This document shows positions 6,457 to 13,075 of a stretch of 59,034 bases of DNA, piece after piece. Position 1 is the stretch's first letter; the number at the start of each line of letters is the position of its first letter. Source of the DNA: Planctomycetota bacterium (GTDB lineage Bacteria > Planctomycetota > Phycisphaerae > Tepidisphaerales > Tepidisphaeraceae); contig JBCDCH010000023.1 of assembly GCA_039182125.1 (NCBI GenBank), forward strand, positions 1 through 59,034, in the 5' to 3' direction. The notes beneath the pieces were generated by a model that worked only from the letters and a program-made list of their open reading frames with translations, was not told where the DNA came from and searched no databases. A program made the translations under genes and the position numbers.

Positions 6457-7389
6457 ATGTCAATCGCCTCTTGGGTTTGGGCCATGCTTTTGTCGGCGGG
6501 CGTGGGCGATACCGTGAACATCACGCCACGGTTGGCCGTCAACGAAAATGGCTGCCCAACCATTTTCGTCCTGCATGTTCCGCCAAGCGACGTCGACCGA
6601 TTCGTGTTGATCGAGCCGACCGGCAACGCGCTCAACGGGGTGGATCGGATCATGCCGCTGGGTGCCGTGGAGGTCCCCGCCGGGTCGAGCGTGTTGCCGG
6701 TCCTTCTTCCGATCATCGATGACAGGTTTGGCGAGATCGATGAGACAACGGTCGTCGTACCGCGATATCACCCGGAGCAGGAGTTAGCTGTAAAGGCCGC
6801 CGAGTCGGTCCTTGCCGACTTCGACGAGAGTTTTGCTCAACGCGTCAATGCCCTTCCGGCACTCTACCGCGTGCCACTGTTAGCAATGGGCGGCGAAAAC
6901 CTCCGAATCTGGAGTGCGCCGATCACCTGGCACGAGTTAGTGGACGCGAGACGTGATGAGGCGTGCGTGCCGGTACTGCGGATCACCCCACCGCCGCGCG
7001 TGCTGGCCGCCCACGGTGATGCCCTCGACGCGGGCCAGCCGCTGCTCTTCGACATCAAGCAGGTGCCCAATCACGCGCGCGAAGTCTGGGCGCTACGCAA
7101 AACCTCGGGCTGGCGGCTCGGTGGCGACTTCCCAACGTGGGAACTCACACGCTTCTATCGCGACAGCCACACGGGGCAAAACGCGCGGATCACGCTCACC
7201 GCACCCCGCGATCCGTCGGCCGGCGAGGCATTTGTCATCTTCCGCGATCAACCCGAGCCATTCATCGCTGGCACGAAAACACCTAACGATGTCATCGACT
7301 TCATCGTCGAGGACGACGATGAAGCCACGACACGAGTACTTGGGGCGATGCACGAGCAATGGCCGCCACCGATGGATCGGCGGATCTGA
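6457..7389 (+). CDS. Calx-beta-like secreted protein, upstream half of a split gene
   Basis: A 310-residue ORF that begins with a hydrophobic segment (SIASWVWAMLLSAGVG), a probable short signal. Residues of about 45-100 resemble a Calx-beta domain: GNALNGVDRIMPLGAVEVPAG, then IIDDRFGEIDETTVVV, matching the family's 'GTAxxGxDY...VTIPAG...I.DD...EGDET' layout. The rest is not recognised. The frame ends at TGA 7387-7389 but stays open beyond it with protein-like content (FGRVGPWTTAYNDLADDY), running directly into the next ORF in the same frame. The full product was probably about 520 residues, interrupted by a nonsense change. Function unknown. Confidence 0.55.
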   Translation: MSIASWVWAMLLSAGVGDTVNITPRLAVNENGCPTIFVLHVPPSDVDRFVLIEPTGNALNGVDRIMPLGAVEVPAGSSVLPVLLPIIDDRFGEIDETTVVVPRYHPEQELAVKAAESVLADFDESFAQRVNALPALYRVPLLAMGGENLRIWSAPITWHELVDARRDEACVPVLRITPPPRVLAAHGDALDAGQPLLFDIKQVPNHAREVWALRKTSGWRLGGDFPTWELTRFYRDSHTGQNARITLTAPRDPSAGEAFVIFRDQPEPFIAGTKTPNDVIDFIVEDDDEATTRVLGAMHEQWPPPMDRRI

Positions 7390-7428
7390 TTCGGGCGCGT
7401 CGGGCCATGGACCACGGCATACAACGAC

Positions 7429-8019
7429 TTGGCCGACGATTACCCGGCGAACATGCCTCCGGTCCTGTTCTTCAGCGGCTATCTCGACGGCGACGCCGTG
7501 GGTGACGTGCTACGCGGCCACACGATCGATCGGCTGGTGCATGATCCGGTTGTCTCGTCATTTGGCACACTCCATCCGCCCACGCCAATGCTGCTCCCCG
7601 ACGAGACGCGTGGGATGTTGCAACGGCTTCTCTTCGACGCCGGCCTGTGGCCGAACTTGGTCGAACTGGTAAGCGTGCTGCCACACGAACAGAGTGCGCT
7701 GCTCAACGCGTTGGTGCTCGACTCGATCGATCAGGTGGCAGTCGGCCGGCTGATCGAAAAGTTGGACTCCCACGACTTCATTACCCGCCGTGCGGCCGTA
7801 AGACGCTTGATCGACCTCGGCGTTGCCGGAGAGATACTTGTTGGTCGACTCGACCCGAAAACACTCACGGCCGAACAGGCGGCACTGCTTCGCAACATCG
7901 CCGTCCAACGCCGATCTTGGCTCGCGTTATCCAGAGACCTGTCGCCGCAGGAACGAGAGACGTTCATGCGCTATCACGCCGATCCACGCGTTCGCACTGC
8001 CGACCGGCCGGAGCGCTGA
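7429..8019 (+). CDS. Downstream half of the split gene; helical-repeat region
   Basis: In frame with the upstream ORF after its TGA. The first usable start is TTG 7429, which has no recognisable ribosome-binding site, so independent translation is doubtful. Residues of about 100-170 are helical: LIEKLDSHDFITRRAAVRRLIDLG followed by EQAALLRNI. This resembles the 'LDSDDFxxREKATxELxxLG' helical repeat common in planctomycete proteins (from memory of the family, not searched). It ends 8 bases before the convergent methyltransferase stop. It could be a remnant or the C-terminal half of one readthrough product. Confidence 0.5.
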   Translation: MADDYPANMPPVLFFSGYLDGDAVGDVLRGHTIDRLVHDPVVSSFGTLHPPTPMLLPDETRGMLQRLLFDAGLWPNLVELVSVLPHEQSALLNALVLDSIDQVAVGRLIEKLDSHDFITRRAAVRRLIDLGVAGEILVGRLDPKTLTAEQAALLRNIAVQRRSWLALSRDLSPQERETFMRYHADPRVRTADRPER

Positions 8020-8027
8020 TTCGCGGC

Positions 8028-9092
8028 TCAGCCGGCAACCTTCGCCTTGCGGCGGGGGACGCGCTTGCGGCCCAGGGCGTCGGTTTCGGTTTCGACTTTG
8101 CTCGCGCGGCCGGTCGGGGCGGCTTTGCTGATGTCGATGCTGTCGTTGCCTTCGCCGTGCTCTTCGAGGGCGGCGGCGAGGCGGCGGCGGGCGAAGCCGA
8201 CGTATTCCTCGTTCTGCTCAAGGCCGACGTACTTGCGACCGAGCAGGGCCGACGCGACGACGGTGGTGCCCGAGCCGTTGAACGGGTCGAGCACGACATC
8301 ACCGGGGTTGGAGCTGACCTTCACGATCCGCTCGAGCACGGCCAGCGGCATCTGGCAGCCGTGCCAGCCCTCACGCTCCTTGAACGTCCCGCACAACCGC
8401 GACTCGAACCAGACGTCGTCGTCCTGGTTGAACAAGTCACCCTGCGCTTCTTGCGGACGCAGGTACCAGGTGTCGTCTGGGATCTTGCCCTTCTTGGACG
8501 CCCGCTTGTCGTTGTAGATCAGCTGCCGGGCCGACGGCACGCGGATGGCGTCGGCGTTGAAGGTGAAGTTCTTCTCGTCCTTGACGAAGTAAAGGATGTG
8601 CGTGTGGCTGCGGGCGAACTTCTGCTTGGGCTGTTGGCCGAACGTGTAGTGCCAGACGATCCAGTTGCGGAGGTTGAAGCCGACGCTCTTGGCCGCGACG
8701 CACAGCTCCGCTGCGTACTCGTCGCCGATGGCGAGGTAGAAGCTGCCGTTGTCCTTGAGCGCACGATGCACGGCCTTCATCCAGTCGGTCGACCAGTGCA
8801 CGTACTGCTCGGCGGGTTTCTCGTCCTCGTAGCCGTTGTAGAGGTAGCCGATGTTGAACGGCGGGTCGGCGAAGCACAGGTCGGCCCACCCCGGCTTGGC
8901 CGCGTTGAGCAGTTCGAGGCTGTCGCCGGGGATGATCTGGTCGGGCTTCACGTTACCGGACGGATCATACAGTTCGGGAACGATTCGGCCCACCACATCC
9001 GGTGAACTTTCCTTGAGCTTCCGCAAGCCCTTGTTGAAGGCTTGCTTGCGGTCGGCCGGGACGATCGGGGCTTTCTTCGTGGAACGAACCAT
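8028..9092 (-). CDS. Site-specific DNA methyltransferase, beta class (N6-A/N4-C), orphan
   Basis: Transfers a methyl group from S-adenosylmethionine to adenine or cytosine amino groups. Catalytic motif IV DPPF (ADPPFNIGYLYNGYEDE, near residue 76 from this start) precedes the AdoMet-binding motif I region DPFNGSGTT near the C-terminus. That order defines the beta class (CcrM/HinfI-like). The tail is basic (GRKRVPRRKAKVAG). ATG 9092 (MVRSTKKAP) was chosen; an ATG at 9152 in the same frame adds 20 residues of weak character, and neither has a clear ribosome-binding site. No restriction endonuclease is adjacent, so it is an orphan or a partner of the divergent LRR-Roc/TIR operon, whose start is only about 80 bases away. 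The recognition site cannot be predicted. Confidence 0.88.
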   Translation of the reverse strand: MVRSTKKAPIVPADRKQAFNKGLRKLKESSPDVVGRIVPELYDPSGNVKPDQIIPGDSLELLNAAKPGWADLCFADPPFNIGYLYNGYEDEKPAEQYVHWSTDWMKAVHRALKDNGSFYLAIGDEYAAELCVAAKSVGFNLRNWIVWHYTFGQQPKQKFARSHTHILYFVKDEKNFTFNADAIRVPSARQLIYNDKRASKKGKIPDDTWYLRPQEAQGDLFNQDDDVWFESRLCGTFKEREGWHGCQMPLAVLERIVKVSSNPGDVVLDPFNGSGTTVVASALLGRKYVGLEQNEEYVGFARRRLAAALEEHGEGNDSIDISKAAPTGRASKVETETDALGRKRVPRRKAKVAG

Positions 9093-9174
9093 GATCGGTG
9101 CATCGTCCGATAAGCCGCAGGTGCTTGATTGAAACCGGAAACCATATCGCACGTCTGCAGCCCATCATACAGTC

Positions 9175-11472
9175 ATGTCGATGAGTGAGAGCGGACGGCA
9201 TCTAGGTACAGACAAGGCTCGGCGACGAATCACGGCTGCGAAACGTGAACGATTAGCCAAGTTAGACCTAGCGGGTCTGGGGCTCGCTACGGTGCCGCCG
9301 GGAATTGAAGAGCTCCCATGGCTAAGGCGACTTGATCTGGGTAACAACCAACTCACCGCCCTTCCGGAAGAGATCGAGTCACTCACCGAGCTGCAGGAGC
9401 TGGTCCTCAGCCGCAACCGTCTCGCCACACTGCCGCCAGAAATCACGAAACTCACCACACTAGAAAGCCTGGACCTCCGCCACAACCAACTCGACACGCT
9501 GCCGCCAGAGATCGCAAAGCTCACCACGCTCCAGCACTTGGACCTCGCCGTAAATCATCTCAACACGCTGCCGCCAGAGATCACGAAACTCACCGCACTA
9601 CACACGCTGTTCCTCGGCGGCAACCAGCTCGCCAAGCTACCGCCAGAAGTTGCCAAACTCTCCGCTTTGCGAACGCTCGCCCTCGATTTCAATCAGCTCA
9701 CCAAGCTACCACCAGAAGTTGCCAAACTCTCCGCTTTGCGATCGCTGTTCCTCAATAGCAATCTGCTCACCAGTCTGCCGGCCGACATCTCTAGACTCCA
9801 TGGCCTCAGAAACTTAAGTGCCTCGGACAATCGCCTCCTGTCACTGCCAAAGACGCTGCTTGAGCTAGGTGAGCTAGAATGGCTCTTTTTGCAGGAGAAT
9901 CCGGGTCTCGGCGTTCCAAACGAGGTTCTTGGTCCGGATTACTACGACGTTGCAATCAGCAATGTGATTGCGAAATCTCCCCGTCACATTCTGCAATACT
10001 ACTTCGATGTCGTACATCACGGTGAGCCGTTGCAGGAGTGCAAGCTCATCGTTGTAGGGCGTGGCGGTGCGGGTAAGACGACGTTGATCAAGCGGCTCAA
10101 CCGAGAACCTTACAACCCAGACGAGCCGGAGACGCATGGTATCACCATCTCGGATCTCGCGTTCAAGGGCGAGACGGGCGAAGTCACATCACGGGTCTGG
10201 GACTTCGGCGGGCAGGTCATCCTTCACTCGATGCACGAGTTCTTTATGACCGCGAGGAGCTTGTACCTGCTCGTGCTTGGAGAGCGAGACGACATGCTGG
10301 AACGGGATGCAACATATTGGCTGCAACTCATCCGGAGCTATGCGGACGATGCGCCGGTGATCGTTGTGCTCAACAAGAGCGATGGGCGCGAGCGGTTCTT
10401 CGACCGCAAGAGCATTGAGAAGGAGTACGGGCCGATTCTCGGCTGGATGAGCACCGAATGCTCGGCAGACGATGAGGAGAAAGCCGGGATCGAACAGCTC
10501 CGCAAGGCGATCACACAAGCCATCGACGGCCCGACGATGGATAGCGTCCGGCGAAAGTTCCCTACCAAATGGGCGGAGATCAAACGCTATCTCGAGGACA
10601 TGCCCGACAGCTTCGTCGACTATGCCCGCTATCGAGAGATTTGCAGCGAACGCGGCGAGAAGGATGAGCAGCAACAGCAATGGCTTTCCCAGGACCTGCA
10701 CGACCTCGGCGTCGCGCTCAACTACCAAAACGACCCCCGGCTGCGTGACACCAGCGTGCTCCGACCCGACTGGCTCGCCAACGGCATCTATGCGGTACTC
10801 CGTGCCAACGACAAGGACGAGAAACTCCCCGCCGAGTACAACAAGCCCCTCGCGCCAGACGGCCAAGTCAGTCTTGCTTCGCTGGAGGACATCTACGCCA
10901 AAGCGGAGTCTTGGAAGATGCTCCGAGCGGCGGACTACCCGCTTGAAAAGCGAGAGTTTCTGCTTCGGCTCATGGACACGTTCCACCTGAGCTACCCGCT
11001 CGACTCCGAAACGCACACGCACCTTGTCCCGTCACTCCTGCCGGTCCATCCGCCGGACGAGGCGCAGGACCCAACGGGCGAAAACCAGTCCAAGCTGCGG
11101 TACGAGTTCCAGGTCGTCCCCGCCCCGCTGATCCCGTGGTTCATCGCGAAGACATTCACGCTGATCCCTGGTCATCTTCACTGGCGCCGCGGCGCGATGC
11201 TTCGGTACGCCGGGGCCAAGGGGAAAATCTGGACCACCCCGGAAGAGCGCTACGTCTACGTCACGGTCGTCGGCGAAACGGACGACGCCAAGCAACTTCT
11301 CTCGATGGTGCGCGGCACGTTGCAGGGACTTTTCGAGGTGTACGAAGGTCTCAAAGTCGTCGAGCAACACGACTACGACGGGGCATGGGTGCCACGCCCA
11401 ACGCTTGAGAAGATCGGCGTTCTCGAACCCCAATCCCGCGACGACGAGTTCGAGTTCGGGGGTGACGAATGA
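9175..11472 (+). CDS. LRR-Roc-COR (Roco family) GTPase
   Basis: A 765-residue bacterial Roco protein. Residues of about 27-260 are ten leucine-rich repeats of 23 residues (for example LESLDLRHNQLDTLPPEIAKLTT). A Ras-like Roc domain follows: P-loop GRGGAGKT at 295-302, switch II DFGGQ at 343-347, and NKSD at 400-403. COR-like sequence covers roughly 430-760 (LSQDLHDLGVALNYQNDP, LRPDWLANGIYAVL, RYEFQVVPAPLIPWFI). Known Roco proteins cycle through GTP-dependent dimer/monomer states. No kinase or transmembrane segment is present. Its stop overlaps the start of the TIR gene (ATGA), so the two are translationally coupled. The LRRs as a sensor, Roc-COR as a switch and the TIR protein as the output is inference. 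Confidence 0.92.
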   Translation: MSMSESGRHLGTDKARRRITAAKRERLAKLDLAGLGLATVPPGIEELPWLRRLDLGNNQLTALPEEIESLTELQELVLSRNRLATLPPEITKLTTLESLDLRHNQLDTLPPEIAKLTTLQHLDLAVNHLNTLPPEITKLTALHTLFLGGNQLAKLPPEVAKLSALRTLALDFNQLTKLPPEVAKLSALRSLFLNSNLLTSLPADISRLHGLRNLSASDNRLLSLPKTLLELGELEWLFLQENPGLGVPNEVLGPDYYDVAISNVIAKSPRHILQYYFDVVHHGEPLQECKLIVVGRGGAGKTTLIKRLNREPYNPDEPETHGITISDLAFKGETGEVTSRVWDFGGQVILHSMHEFFMTARSLYLLVLGERDDMLERDATYWLQLIRSYADDAPVIVVLNKSDGRERFFDRKSIEKEYGPILGWMSTECSADDEEKAGIEQLRKAITQAIDGPTMDSVRRKFPTKWAEIKRYLEDMPDSFVDYARYREICSERGEKDEQQQQWLSQDLHDLGVALNYQNDPRLRDTSVLRPDWLANGIYAVLRANDKDEKLPAEYNKPLAPDGQVSLASLEDIYAKAESWKMLRAADYPLEKREFLLRLMDTFHLSYPLDSETHTHLVPSLLPVHPPDEAQDPTGENQSKLRYEFQVVPAPLIPWFIAKTFTLIPGHLHWRRGAMLRYAGAKGKIWTTPEERYVYVTVVGETDDAKQLLSMVRGTLQGLFEVYEGLKVVEQHDYDGAWVPRPTLEKIGVLEPQSRDDEFEFGGDE
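9633..9770 (+). repeat. Near-identical tandem 69-base LRR units
   Basis: Two adjacent 69-base units (9633-9701 and 9702-9770) inside the LRR region. Their first 40 bases differ at one position, while the variable, solvent-exposed LRR positions in the second half differ more. This indicates recent unit duplication with divergence concentrated in the exposed face. Confidence 0.8.
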
Positions 11473-11972
11473 AACGCGGAAGGAAACATGCCCGCATCTT
11501 CGTGAGCTACTCGCACCGTGACCGCGATTGGTTTCAGCGGCTTCGTCCGCTTCTGGAGTTTGACCAACTCCCCACCAGAACCGTCCATGCCTGGCACGAC
11601 AATGAACTGCATGCGGGAGATCGCTGGGACGACGAGATTCGGACCGAGCTCGAAGCGATGGACGTGTTCGTTTGCCTGTTGAGTTACAACTTCAAATCAT
11701 CAACGTATATCAAGACCGTTGAGCAACCGGCGGCATTCAAACGCGAAAAACTCAAGAAGACCATCATCATCCCGCTGCTACTGATCAAGATGGATGACCG
11801 CGACATTCAGGATTACAAGCCGTTCAATCCGTTGCCGGCGTGGGGCAAGAGTTGGCTTTGCTACAAGGAGGAAGGCGGCGAGTTGGACATGGCACTCAAG
11901 CCGATCCGGACCGGGCTGCTCGATGCCGTCGAACGCGTTCTCCGACCATCCCGGAGAAAATCAGTCACATAG
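11469..11972 (+). CDS. Stand-alone TIR-domain protein
   Basis: A 167-residue protein that is almost entirely a TIR domain. Strand A and box 1 are ARIFVSYSHRDRDWFQ (residues 8-23). WHDNELHAGDRWDDEIRTELEAMDVFVCLLS covers the BB-loop and central core. SSTYIKTVEQ follows, with E85 at the position of the catalytic glutamate of NAD-cleaving TIRs, and then IIIPLLLIKMDD. Bacterial TIR domains in defence systems (for example Thoeris) cleave NAD or make NAD-derived signals. The ATG lies inside the stop of the LRR-Roc-COR gene (4-base overlap), so it is coupled to it. No second domain, signal peptide or membrane anchor is present. NADase activity is inference from E85 and family precedent. Confidence 0.88.
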   Translation: MKRGRKHARIFVSYSHRDRDWFQRLRPLLEFDQLPTRTVHAWHDNELHAGDRWDDEIRTELEAMDVFVCLLSYNFKSSTYIKTVEQPAAFKREKLKKTIIIPLLLIKMDDRDIQDYKPFNPLPAWGKSWLCYKEEGGELDMALKPIRTGLLDAVERVLRPSRRKSVT

Positions 11973-12025: not shown

Positions 12026-13075
12026 GTGAATGCCACGCTTCGCATGCTTGATGCCAATCTTAACCGGGCGCGGGAGGGGTTGCGGGTCGTGGAGGATTGG
12101 GCGCGGTTCGTGCGGGATGATGCGGGGGTGGCGTCTGACGTGCGGGCGATTCGGCGGGAGCTTTCGACGCTGCACACCACGGAGATGATCGCGGCACGGG
12201 ATGCGTCGGCGGACGTGGGCATGGGCACGCCGCAGCGCGACGCCGGGACGACGGCCGAGATGGTCACGGCCAACAGCAAGCGTGTCACCGAAGCGCTCCG
12301 CGTCATCGAAGAGGGTCTGAAAACCACCGGCGGCAACGCCCGACTCGCCGAGCAGCTGAGGCACCGGTTCTACGCCATCGAGCAACGCGTCACCGCCCTG
12401 CTCACCCGGCCGACCTTTGGTGATGTGCGGGTGTACGTGCTCATCACCGAGGCGATCTGCAGGCGGCCGTGGCGGGACGTGGCACAAGCGGCGATCGACG
12501 TGGGGACTGGGTGTTTGCAGTTGCGTGAGCCGGAGCTGCCGACGCGGGAGCTAGCCGAGCGGGCGGCATGGCTGACCGAGCGATGCGCGGCGGCCAAGGT
12601 ACACTTCGTCGTGAACGATCGCGCCGATGTGGCCCGCTTCGTTCCCGGCGCCGGCGTGCATGTCGGGCAGAGCGATCTGCCGGTGACCAACGTCCGCGCC
12701 ATCGTCGGCCCCGACCGGCTGGTCGGCCTGAGCACGCACAACGTCGAGCAGATTCAACACGCGATCGACAGCGGTGCGGACTATGTCGGCGTCGGTCCGG
12801 TGTATCCGAGCGCGACAAAGCCGCGCGACTTTCTGCCGGGATTGGATTTTGCATGCGAGGCCGCGAAGCTGCCGATCCCGACGGTGGCGATCGGGGGGAT
12901 CACGCTCGAGAACGCGGCAGACGTGTTCGAGACGGGCGTGGATACGATCGCGGTGACGGCGGCGGTGTGCGCAGCGGATGATCCGGGCGAAGCGGTCACG
13001 TCGCTACTCGACACGGCCAACCGCGTTGGGGAGCAACGCAGCTACAAGACACGTGACGCAATCAAGGACGCGTAG
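12026..13075 (+). CDS. thiE: ThiD2-ThiE fusion, thiamine phosphate synthase
   Basis: A bifunctional thiamine-pathway protein of 349 residues. Residues 5-130 match the ThiD2 domain (LDANLNRAREGLRVVEDWARF, RRELSTLHTTEMIAARD, SKRVTEALRVIEEGLK), a non-orthologous hydroxymethylpyrimidine-phosphate kinase. Residues of about 137-335 are ThiE, a TIM barrel joining HMP-PP and thiazole phosphate. ThiE landmarks are LQLREPELPTREL, FVVNDRADVARFV, GVHVGQSDLP, GLSTHN, DYVGVGPVYPSATK and TVAIGGITLENAADV. GTG 12026 is chosen; it lies in the arm of a small hairpin (ACGGCGG/CCGCCGT, 12006-12027) that might affect initiation. No TPP riboswitch was recognised. The 3' end is tandemly duplicated beyond the stop. 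Confidence 0.9.
   Translation: MNATLRMLDANLNRAREGLRVVEDWARFVRDDAGVASDVRAIRRELSTLHTTEMIAARDASADVGMGTPQRDAGTTAEMVTANSKRVTEALRVIEEGLKTTGGNARLAEQLRHRFYAIEQRVTALLTRPTFGDVRVYVLITEAICRRPWRDVAQAAIDVGTGCLQLREPELPTRELAERAAWLTERCAAAKVHFVVNDRADVARFVPGAGVHVGQSDLPVTNVRAIVGPDRLVGLSTHNVEQIQHAIDSGADYVGVGPVYPSATKPRDFLPGLDFACEAAKLPIPTVAIGGITLENAADVFETGVDTIAVTAAVCAADDPGEAVTSLLDTANRVGEQRSYKTRDAIKDA

What the first reader, a model, noticed from the sequence alone, without database searches (positions are those of the whole stretch)
8028..11972. LRR-Roc-COR GTPase coupled to a TIR protein beside an orphan DNA methyltransferase: candidate bacterial NLR-like defence system
Seen: the LRR-Roc-COR stop and the TIR start overlap by 4 bases, the Roc motifs are intact (GRGGAGKT, DFGGQ, NKSD), and the TIR has a glutamate at the catalytic position (E85). 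A beta-class methyltransferase is divergent and its start is about 80 bases away. Known: TIR domains in bacterial defence cleave NAD or make NAD-derived signals; plant NLRs join LRR, a nucleotide switch and TIR. Inference: here the same three functions are split over two coupled proteins with a GTPase (not a STAND ATPase) as the switch, and methylation might mark self DNA or be unrelated. I do not know a described system with this composition.
Basis: partly seen in the sequence, partly recalled or inferred. Interest (0 to 1): 0.85.

Follow-up and report, generated by a model that had tools for sequence, protein, structure and literature searches.

The report
Split Roco GTPase–TIR candidate immunity pair
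A planctomycete carries a mobile two-gene unit that couples a bacterial relative of the Parkinson's-disease GTPase LRRK2 to a separate, apparently NAD-cutting TIR protein; it is a two-gene version of an already predicted bacterial immune system, and the DNA methyltransferase beside it is only an old neighbour.

Summary
In detail: an intact LRR-Roc-COR (Roco) gene (9175-11472) overlaps a TIR gene (11469-11972) by ATGA, with all Roc motifs and the TIR catalytic glutamate E85. The pair is real. A homologous two-gene operon (61%/56% amino-acid identity, TAATG overlap, perfect Shine-Dalgarno) occurs in another class of the phylum, and 4-fold sites are only about 30% identical, so both proteins are under purifying selection. 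In a Roc-COR tree the two split pairs are sister to a clade of fused LRR-Roc-COR-TIR proteins (97/96 support). The methyltransferase part of the finding fails. In 20 of 25 family relatives this methyltransferase and the thiamine gene thiE are immediate divergent neighbours (gap <300 bp), and the low-GC Roco-TIR cassette is inserted between them. The kind is already predicted: Kaur et al. 2021 (PMC8195603) described LRR-AP-GTPase-COR 'counter-invader' proteins with C-terminal effectors including TIR. No experimental test was found. What is new is the two-gene architecture, in which the TIR acts in trans. Best mechanism (inferred, about 0.55): LRR sensing, Roc GTP switch, TIR assembly, NAD+ hydrolysis or cyclisation, abortive defence. 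Novelty: new variant of a known kind; interest about 0.42.

The parts
9175..11472 (+). LRR-Roc-COR (Roco / AP-GTPase) protein, 765 aa
   Evidence: phmmer match to CtRoco (6hlu/8r4b 'Rab family protein') E 4e-67, residues 47-718
9250..9924 (+). Leucine-rich repeats: about ten 23-residue repeats, putative sensor
   Evidence: Pfam LRR; AlphaFold LRR region mostly pLDDT 82-93 with strands every 23 residues
10042..10482 (+). Roc GTPase domain with GRGGAGKT, WDFGGQ, NKSD
10561..11412 (+). COR-A and COR-B dimerisation/relay domains
11413..11469 (+). Short acidic C-terminal tail of the Roco; a linker and TIR follow here in the fused relatives
   Evidence: alignment with fused relatives; net charge of last 20 residues -5, and -7 in the homologue
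11458..11472 (+). Shine-Dalgarno-like GGGGGTGA and ATGA stop/start overlap
   Evidence: sequence
11469..11972 (+). Stand-alone TIR domain protein, 167 aa, F11 and E85 conserved (E85 codon 11721-11723)
8028..9152 (-). Beta-class DNA N6/N4 methyltransferase; NOT part of the system: core gene flanking the insertion site
12026..13075 (+). ThiD2-ThiE thiamine phosphate synthase; NOT part of the system: other flank of the insertion site

Best explanation
A horizontally acquired two-gene conflict cassette: the two-gene form of the predicted LRR-AP-GTPase(Roc)-COR-TIR immune proteins. The Roco protein is the sensor and switch (LRRs contact an invader molecule; the Roc domain swaps GDP for GTP and COR relays the change), and the TIR, made by translational coupling, is its effector in trans. 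On activation the Roco gathers TIR subunits, whose E85 active site hydrolyses or cyclises NAD+, and the infected cell stops growing or dies. Shown: genes, motifs, conserved operon, relation to fused proteins, insertion next to an unrelated core methyltransferase. Inferred: ligand, GTP gating, TIR recruitment, NAD+ use, defence.
For: Homologous operon in another class, G553/L108, with purifying selection on both genes (aa identity 0.61/0.56 against 4-fold-site identity 0.32/0.29). Split Rocos are sister to a clade of four TIR-fused Rocos, 97/96; TIR is fused C-terminally in eight Rocos surveyed, so the same partner occurs in cis and in trans. TIR fold by AlphaFold (pLDDT 78.5), with AbTIR NADase, plant RPP TIR and SPARTA TIR-APAZ among the nearest solved structures. 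F11 and E85, corresponding to the active-site pair described for ThsB2 (F6/E81, PMC11312562), are conserved. Patchy distribution (COR-A in 4 of 26 family genomes and 26 of 397 class genomes), lower GC (0.59/0.55 against 0.62-0.67) and nearest relative in another class: typical of a mobile conflict gene. Prior prediction: PMC8195603. GTP-driven conformational switching is known for CtRoco: PMC11052575.
Against: No phage-defence or NADase experiment on any bacterial Roco-TIR was found in the library searched. The locus is not in a defence island: flanks are core metabolism and ten other window proteins gave no informative PADLOC match. Only two split pairs were found in 392 phylum genomes plus the genome-contig scan. 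The TIR tree does not show that split and fused TIRs share one origin. CtRoco becomes monomeric with GTP, which does not by itself explain TIR clustering.
Confidence: 0.55

Rival explanations
1. The pair is a signalling module of normal physiology (a GTP-dependent switch with TIR as scaffold or producer of an NAD+-derived signal), not immunity; the effector of the signal lies elsewhere.
For: No defence island around it; no effector gene such as ThsA beside it; the function of most bacterial Rocos is unknown (general knowledge).
Against: Patchy, horizontally moved distribution, catalytic residues kept, swapping of C-terminal effectors in the family (PMC8195603).
Confidence: 0.25
2. Three-gene defence system with the methyltransferase marking self DNA.
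For: Divergent adjacency, 23-82 bp between starts.
Against: Methyltransferase homologues in all 26 family genomes, clear long orthologues in most; adjacent to thiE, without Roco, in 20 of 25 relatives; Roco and MTase on different contigs in the other three Roco-bearing relatives; no divergent MTase beside the second split operon.
Confidence: 0.03
3. TIR acts only as a protein-interaction adaptor or inhibitor of the Roco (like animal adaptor TIRs), not as an enzyme.
For: Small single-domain TIR with a basic N-terminus beside an acidic Roco tail; animal TLR and adaptor TIRs match about as well as NADase TIRs.
Against: E85 and F11 conserved across a 56%-identical homologue and the fused relatives, which an adaptor would not need.
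Confidence: 0.12
4. The split is a decayed or mis-assembled fused Roco-TIR gene.
For: Sister to fused proteins; the two frames differ by one base shift.
Against: Second split operon with a different junction (TAATG), its own Shine-Dalgarno, and purifying selection on both reading frames.
Confidence: 0.02

Closest known systems
Prokaryotic AP-GTPase (LRR-Roc-COR) counter-invader systems (Kaur, Iyer, Burroughs, Aravind 2021, PMC8195603)
   Same: LRR + AP-GTPase/Roc + COR with a TIR effector on the C-terminal side; patchy distribution in bacteria; predicted immunity role
   Different: There the effector is fused in one polypeptide; here TIR is a separate, translationally coupled protein, and the pair recurs as such in two classes
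Chlorobaculum tepidum Roco (CtRoco; PDB 6hlu, 8r4b-d; PMC11052575)
   Same: LRR-Roc-COR order, alignable over residues 47-718 (E 4e-67)
   Different: No TIR partner described for CtRoco; GTP cycle of the window protein not measured
Thoeris (ThsB TIR + ThsA effector; ThsB1/ThsB2 pair in S. aureus, PMC11312562)
   Same: Stand-alone bacterial TIR with F/E active-site pair, best PADLOC hit ThsB (8e-13); in S. aureus a sensor recruits a separate catalytic TIR
   Different: No ThsA gene beside it; the sensor here is a Roco GTPase
Plant TIR-NB-ARC-LRR receptors and bacterial TIR-STAND proteins
   Same: Same three functions: repeats, nucleotide switch, TIR enzyme
   Different: Switch is a Ras-like GTPase of the Roco family, not a STAND ATPase; effector in trans; resemblance is of logic, not descent
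Short pAgo SPARTA (TIR-APAZ + pAgo)
   Same: Two-gene operon in which a sensor protein activates a TIR NADase by assembly; among the Foldseek matches
   Different: Sensor is an Argonaute with guide RNA; no sequence relation outside TIR

Membership tests
Roco (LRR-Roc-COR) GTPases | Tandem Roc and COR domains in one protein | tested here: met
   PF08477, PF16095, PF25497 above cut-off
Roco (LRR-Roc-COR) GTPases | Intact G1, G3, G4 nucleotide-binding motifs | tested here: met
   GRGGAGKT, DFGGQ, NKSD
Roco (LRR-Roc-COR) GTPases | GTPase activity and GTP-dependent dimer-monomer cycle | not testable with these tools
   AlphaFold model of Roc-COR too poor (mostly pLDDT <50) to judge
AP-GTPase counter-invader systems (PMC8195603) | N-terminal LRRs + AP-GTPase/Roc + COR | tested here: met
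AP-GTPase counter-invader systems (PMC8195603) | Variable effector fused at the C-terminus | tested here: not met
   Effector (TIR) is a separate overlapping gene here and in L108, although the nearest clade is TIR-fused
AP-GTPase counter-invader systems (PMC8195603) | Action against invaders | not testable with these tools
   prediction only, in the source paper too
Catalytic TIR NADases | TIR fold | tested here: met
   Pfam; AlphaFold + Foldseek: AbTIR, RPP TIR, SPARTA
Catalytic TIR NADases | Catalytic glutamate and opposing aromatic residue | tested here: met
   E85 and F11 (compare E81/F6 of ThsB2)
Catalytic TIR NADases | NAD+ cleavage or cyclisation | not testable with these tools
   needs an assay
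Thoeris | ThsA effector gene beside thsB | tested here: not met
   neighbours are MTase and thiE
STAND NLR-like proteins (bNACHT, Avs, TIR-NB-ARC) | STAND ATPase domain | tested here: not met
   Pfam finds Roc/Ras GTPase, no NACHT or NB-ARC
Modification-based defence system including the MTase | MTase co-inherited with the cassette | tested here: not met

The most novel reading that the evidence does not exclude
A bacterial Roco acts as a true GTP-gated switch on a trans effector: GTP-bound LRR-Roc-COR recruits and assembles a separate TIR NADase (perhaps through its acidic tail and the TIR's basic N-terminus), making this the first bacterial Roco with a known partner enzyme outside its own chain and a simple immune read-out for LRRK2-type switching.
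Probability: 0.4. Interest if true: 0.65.

Novelty: new variant of a known kind. Interest (0 to 1): 0.42.

Why it matters
What bacterial Roco proteins do is unknown, although CtRoco is a standard structural model for LRRK2. A pair in which the GTPase and its likely effector are separate proteins makes the switch directly testable: mix Roco, nucleotide and TIR and read NAD+. It would give a GTPase-based counterpart to the ATPase-based NLR receptors, with sensor and enzyme separable. It also shows that a neighbouring methyltransferase should be tested for synteny before being called part of a defence system.

Tried and rejected
Methyltransferase as a partner: rejected by synteny. Frameshifted fused gene: rejected by the second split operon and selection. 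Defence island: no informative PADLOC match among ten other window proteins. Prophage or plasmid origin: no homologue in IMG/VR with the split Roc-COR alignment; in the phage collection only LRR matches; plasmid Rocos are at most 34% identical over full length, and the five opened have no annotated separate TIR gene beside them, in a gene table that is incomplete. RNA element at the site: no Rfam match. The first genome-contig scan, with one sequence, found nothing; the second found the G553 locus again and two distant Firmicute Rocos without TIR. More members in the class of G553: none in 20 genomes. AlphaFold of the whole Roco: LRR good, Roc-COR unusable. My own TIR profile missed three TIR fusions later found by Pfam, so TIR fusion is not confined to one Roco clade. 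TIR tree unresolved as to whether split TIRs descend from fused TIRs. In one search a placeholder letter was aligned by mistake; that alignment (A1) was not used.

Full report
What is there. The window is G000:C23, a whole contig of a 4.13 Mb genome; the record holding the best relative is titled 'Planctomycetota bacterium', and G553 is of the same phylum as the window. The ORF at 9175-11472 encodes LRR, Roc, COR-A and COR-B, all above Pfam cut-offs, with GRGGAGKT, DFGGQ and NKSD. It is the only COR-A protein found in the genome. Its stop codon overlaps the ATG of a 167-aa TIR protein (11469-11972) as ATGA, with GGGGGTGA three bases upstream of the ATG. The TIR matches PF13676 (5.3e-15) and, in PADLOC, ThsB (8e-13). 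Its AlphaFold model (mean pLDDT 78.5) finds TIR structures: RPP-type plant TIR, AbTIR, SPARTA TIR-APAZ, TLR TIRs. E85 is the catalytic-glutamate column and F11 the opposing aromatic (active-site pair as described for ThsB2 E81/F6 in PMC11312562). The methyltransferase starts at GTG 9152 or ATG 9093, i.e. 23 or 82 bp from the Roco start.

Is the pair more than chance? Yes. A search of 392 genomes of the phylum found one other genome, G553, in a different class, with both proteins, at 63% (Roco) and 57% (TIR) local identity, in the same order. There the stop and start overlap as TAATG, after a perfect AGGAGG. Between the two loci the aligned proteins are 61% and 56% identical while 4-fold degenerate sites in conserved codons are only 32% and 29% identical. 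Synonymous sites are thus near saturation and both frames have been kept by selection as separate proteins. This excludes an assembly error or decayed fusion.

Relation to fused proteins. Among 38 Roco proteins collected from the phylum and from two Firmicute MAGs (L108 included), eight carry a C-terminal TIR in the same chain (L044, L045, L046, L051, L110 by my profile; L117, L118, L061 by Pfam). In a maximum-likelihood tree of Roc-COR, the two split Rocos (together 100/100) are sister to four of these TIR-fused Rocos with 97/96 support. The tree was midpoint-rooted; L117, L118 and L061 lie elsewhere, so TIR was probably joined to Rocos more than once; L051 was too short to include. The same partner in cis and in trans is the classical gene-fusion argument for functional linkage. 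The TIR tree places the split TIRs on a long, unresolved branch, so whether the split arose by fission or by fresh recruitment is open.

The methyltransferase. Homologues are found in all 26 family genomes, clear long orthologues at about 60-70% identity in most, whereas COR-A is found in 4 of 26 and in 26 of 397 genomes of the class. In 20 of 25 relatives the methyltransferase and thiE are immediate divergent neighbours with 47-295 bp between the matched regions; in the window 2.9 kb holding the Roco-TIR pair separates them. A further relative, G002, has 5.8 kb of unrelated genes in the same gap. In the three other Roco-bearing relatives the Roco and the methyltransferase are on different contigs, and beside the second split operon there is no divergent methyltransferase. 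Roco and TIR have GC 0.588 and 0.550, against 0.62-0.67 for the flanking genes. The cassette is thus a foreign insertion beside a resident gene, and self-marking by this enzyme has no support.

How it most likely works. Shown: architecture, motifs, conserved operon, insertion. From known biology: CtRoco passes from a compact dimer to an open GTP-bound monomer with a large swing of the LRR domain (PMC11052575), and bacterial TIR enzymes act on NAD+ when assembled by a sensor (ThsB1 recruiting ThsB2: PMC11312562; SPARTA, general knowledge). Inference: LRRs bind an invader molecule, GTP loading exposes a TIR-binding surface, gathered TIRs open E85 sites to NAD+, and the cell is arrested. In both split pairs the last 20 residues of the Roco are acidic (-5, -7) and the first ten of the TIR basic (+5, +5), a possible docking contact; with two examples this is only a lead.

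Comparison with the known. Kaur et al. [quoted passage not shown] That is the same kind, as a prediction. Searches of the library found no experimental test and no description of a detached TIR; subscription papers are largely absent from that library, so an unseen report is possible. The difference is the two-gene form. It is not Thoeris (no ThsA beside it) and not a STAND NLR (no NB-ARC or NACHT).

Limits. Only two split pairs are known here. Defence, NADase activity and GTP gating are untested. The Roc-COR part of the structural model was too poor to use, and no complex could be predicted.

Noticed in passing
L112 4705-11234 and L113 4126-10911 (G442): Twice in one genome a TIR-NB-ARC-TPR (NLR-like) gene lies upstream of an LRR-Roco gene on the same strand (in L112 with one LRR ORF between): a STAND receptor and a Roco side by side.
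   Followed up: partly
L150 3-3828 (G350:C215): A fused Roco-TIR of another lineage also lies about 1.2 kb upstream of thiE in the same orientation as in the window; coincidence or a favoured insertion site.
   Followed up: partly
L149 2158-7706 (G002:C41): The methyltransferase-thiE gap holds unrelated genes there (among them a LacI-type regulator by sequence appearance), so the gap accepts different cargo.
   Followed up: partly
L163 1287-5818 (Nostoc sp. UHCC 0926 plasmid pn3): MoxR ATPase followed by a SAV_2336-N protein that also carries a Roc-COR match, with a NACHT gene nearby.
   Followed up: no
L108 282-1598 (G553:C176): A C5-cytosine DNA methyltransferase lies over two separate frames, 5 kb from the second split operon, followed by an ORF with no Pfam match.
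   Followed up: partly
G000:C1:82359-82706: A second TIR protein (877-aa open frame) elsewhere in the window's genome.
   Followed up: no
L105 1501-1767: A TIR with lysine in place of the catalytic glutamate, the only one of 40 aligned.
   Followed up: no
window 6457-8019: Two adjacent ORFs between isocitrate dehydrogenase and the methyltransferase have no Pfam, NCBIfam or PADLOC match.
   Followed up: no
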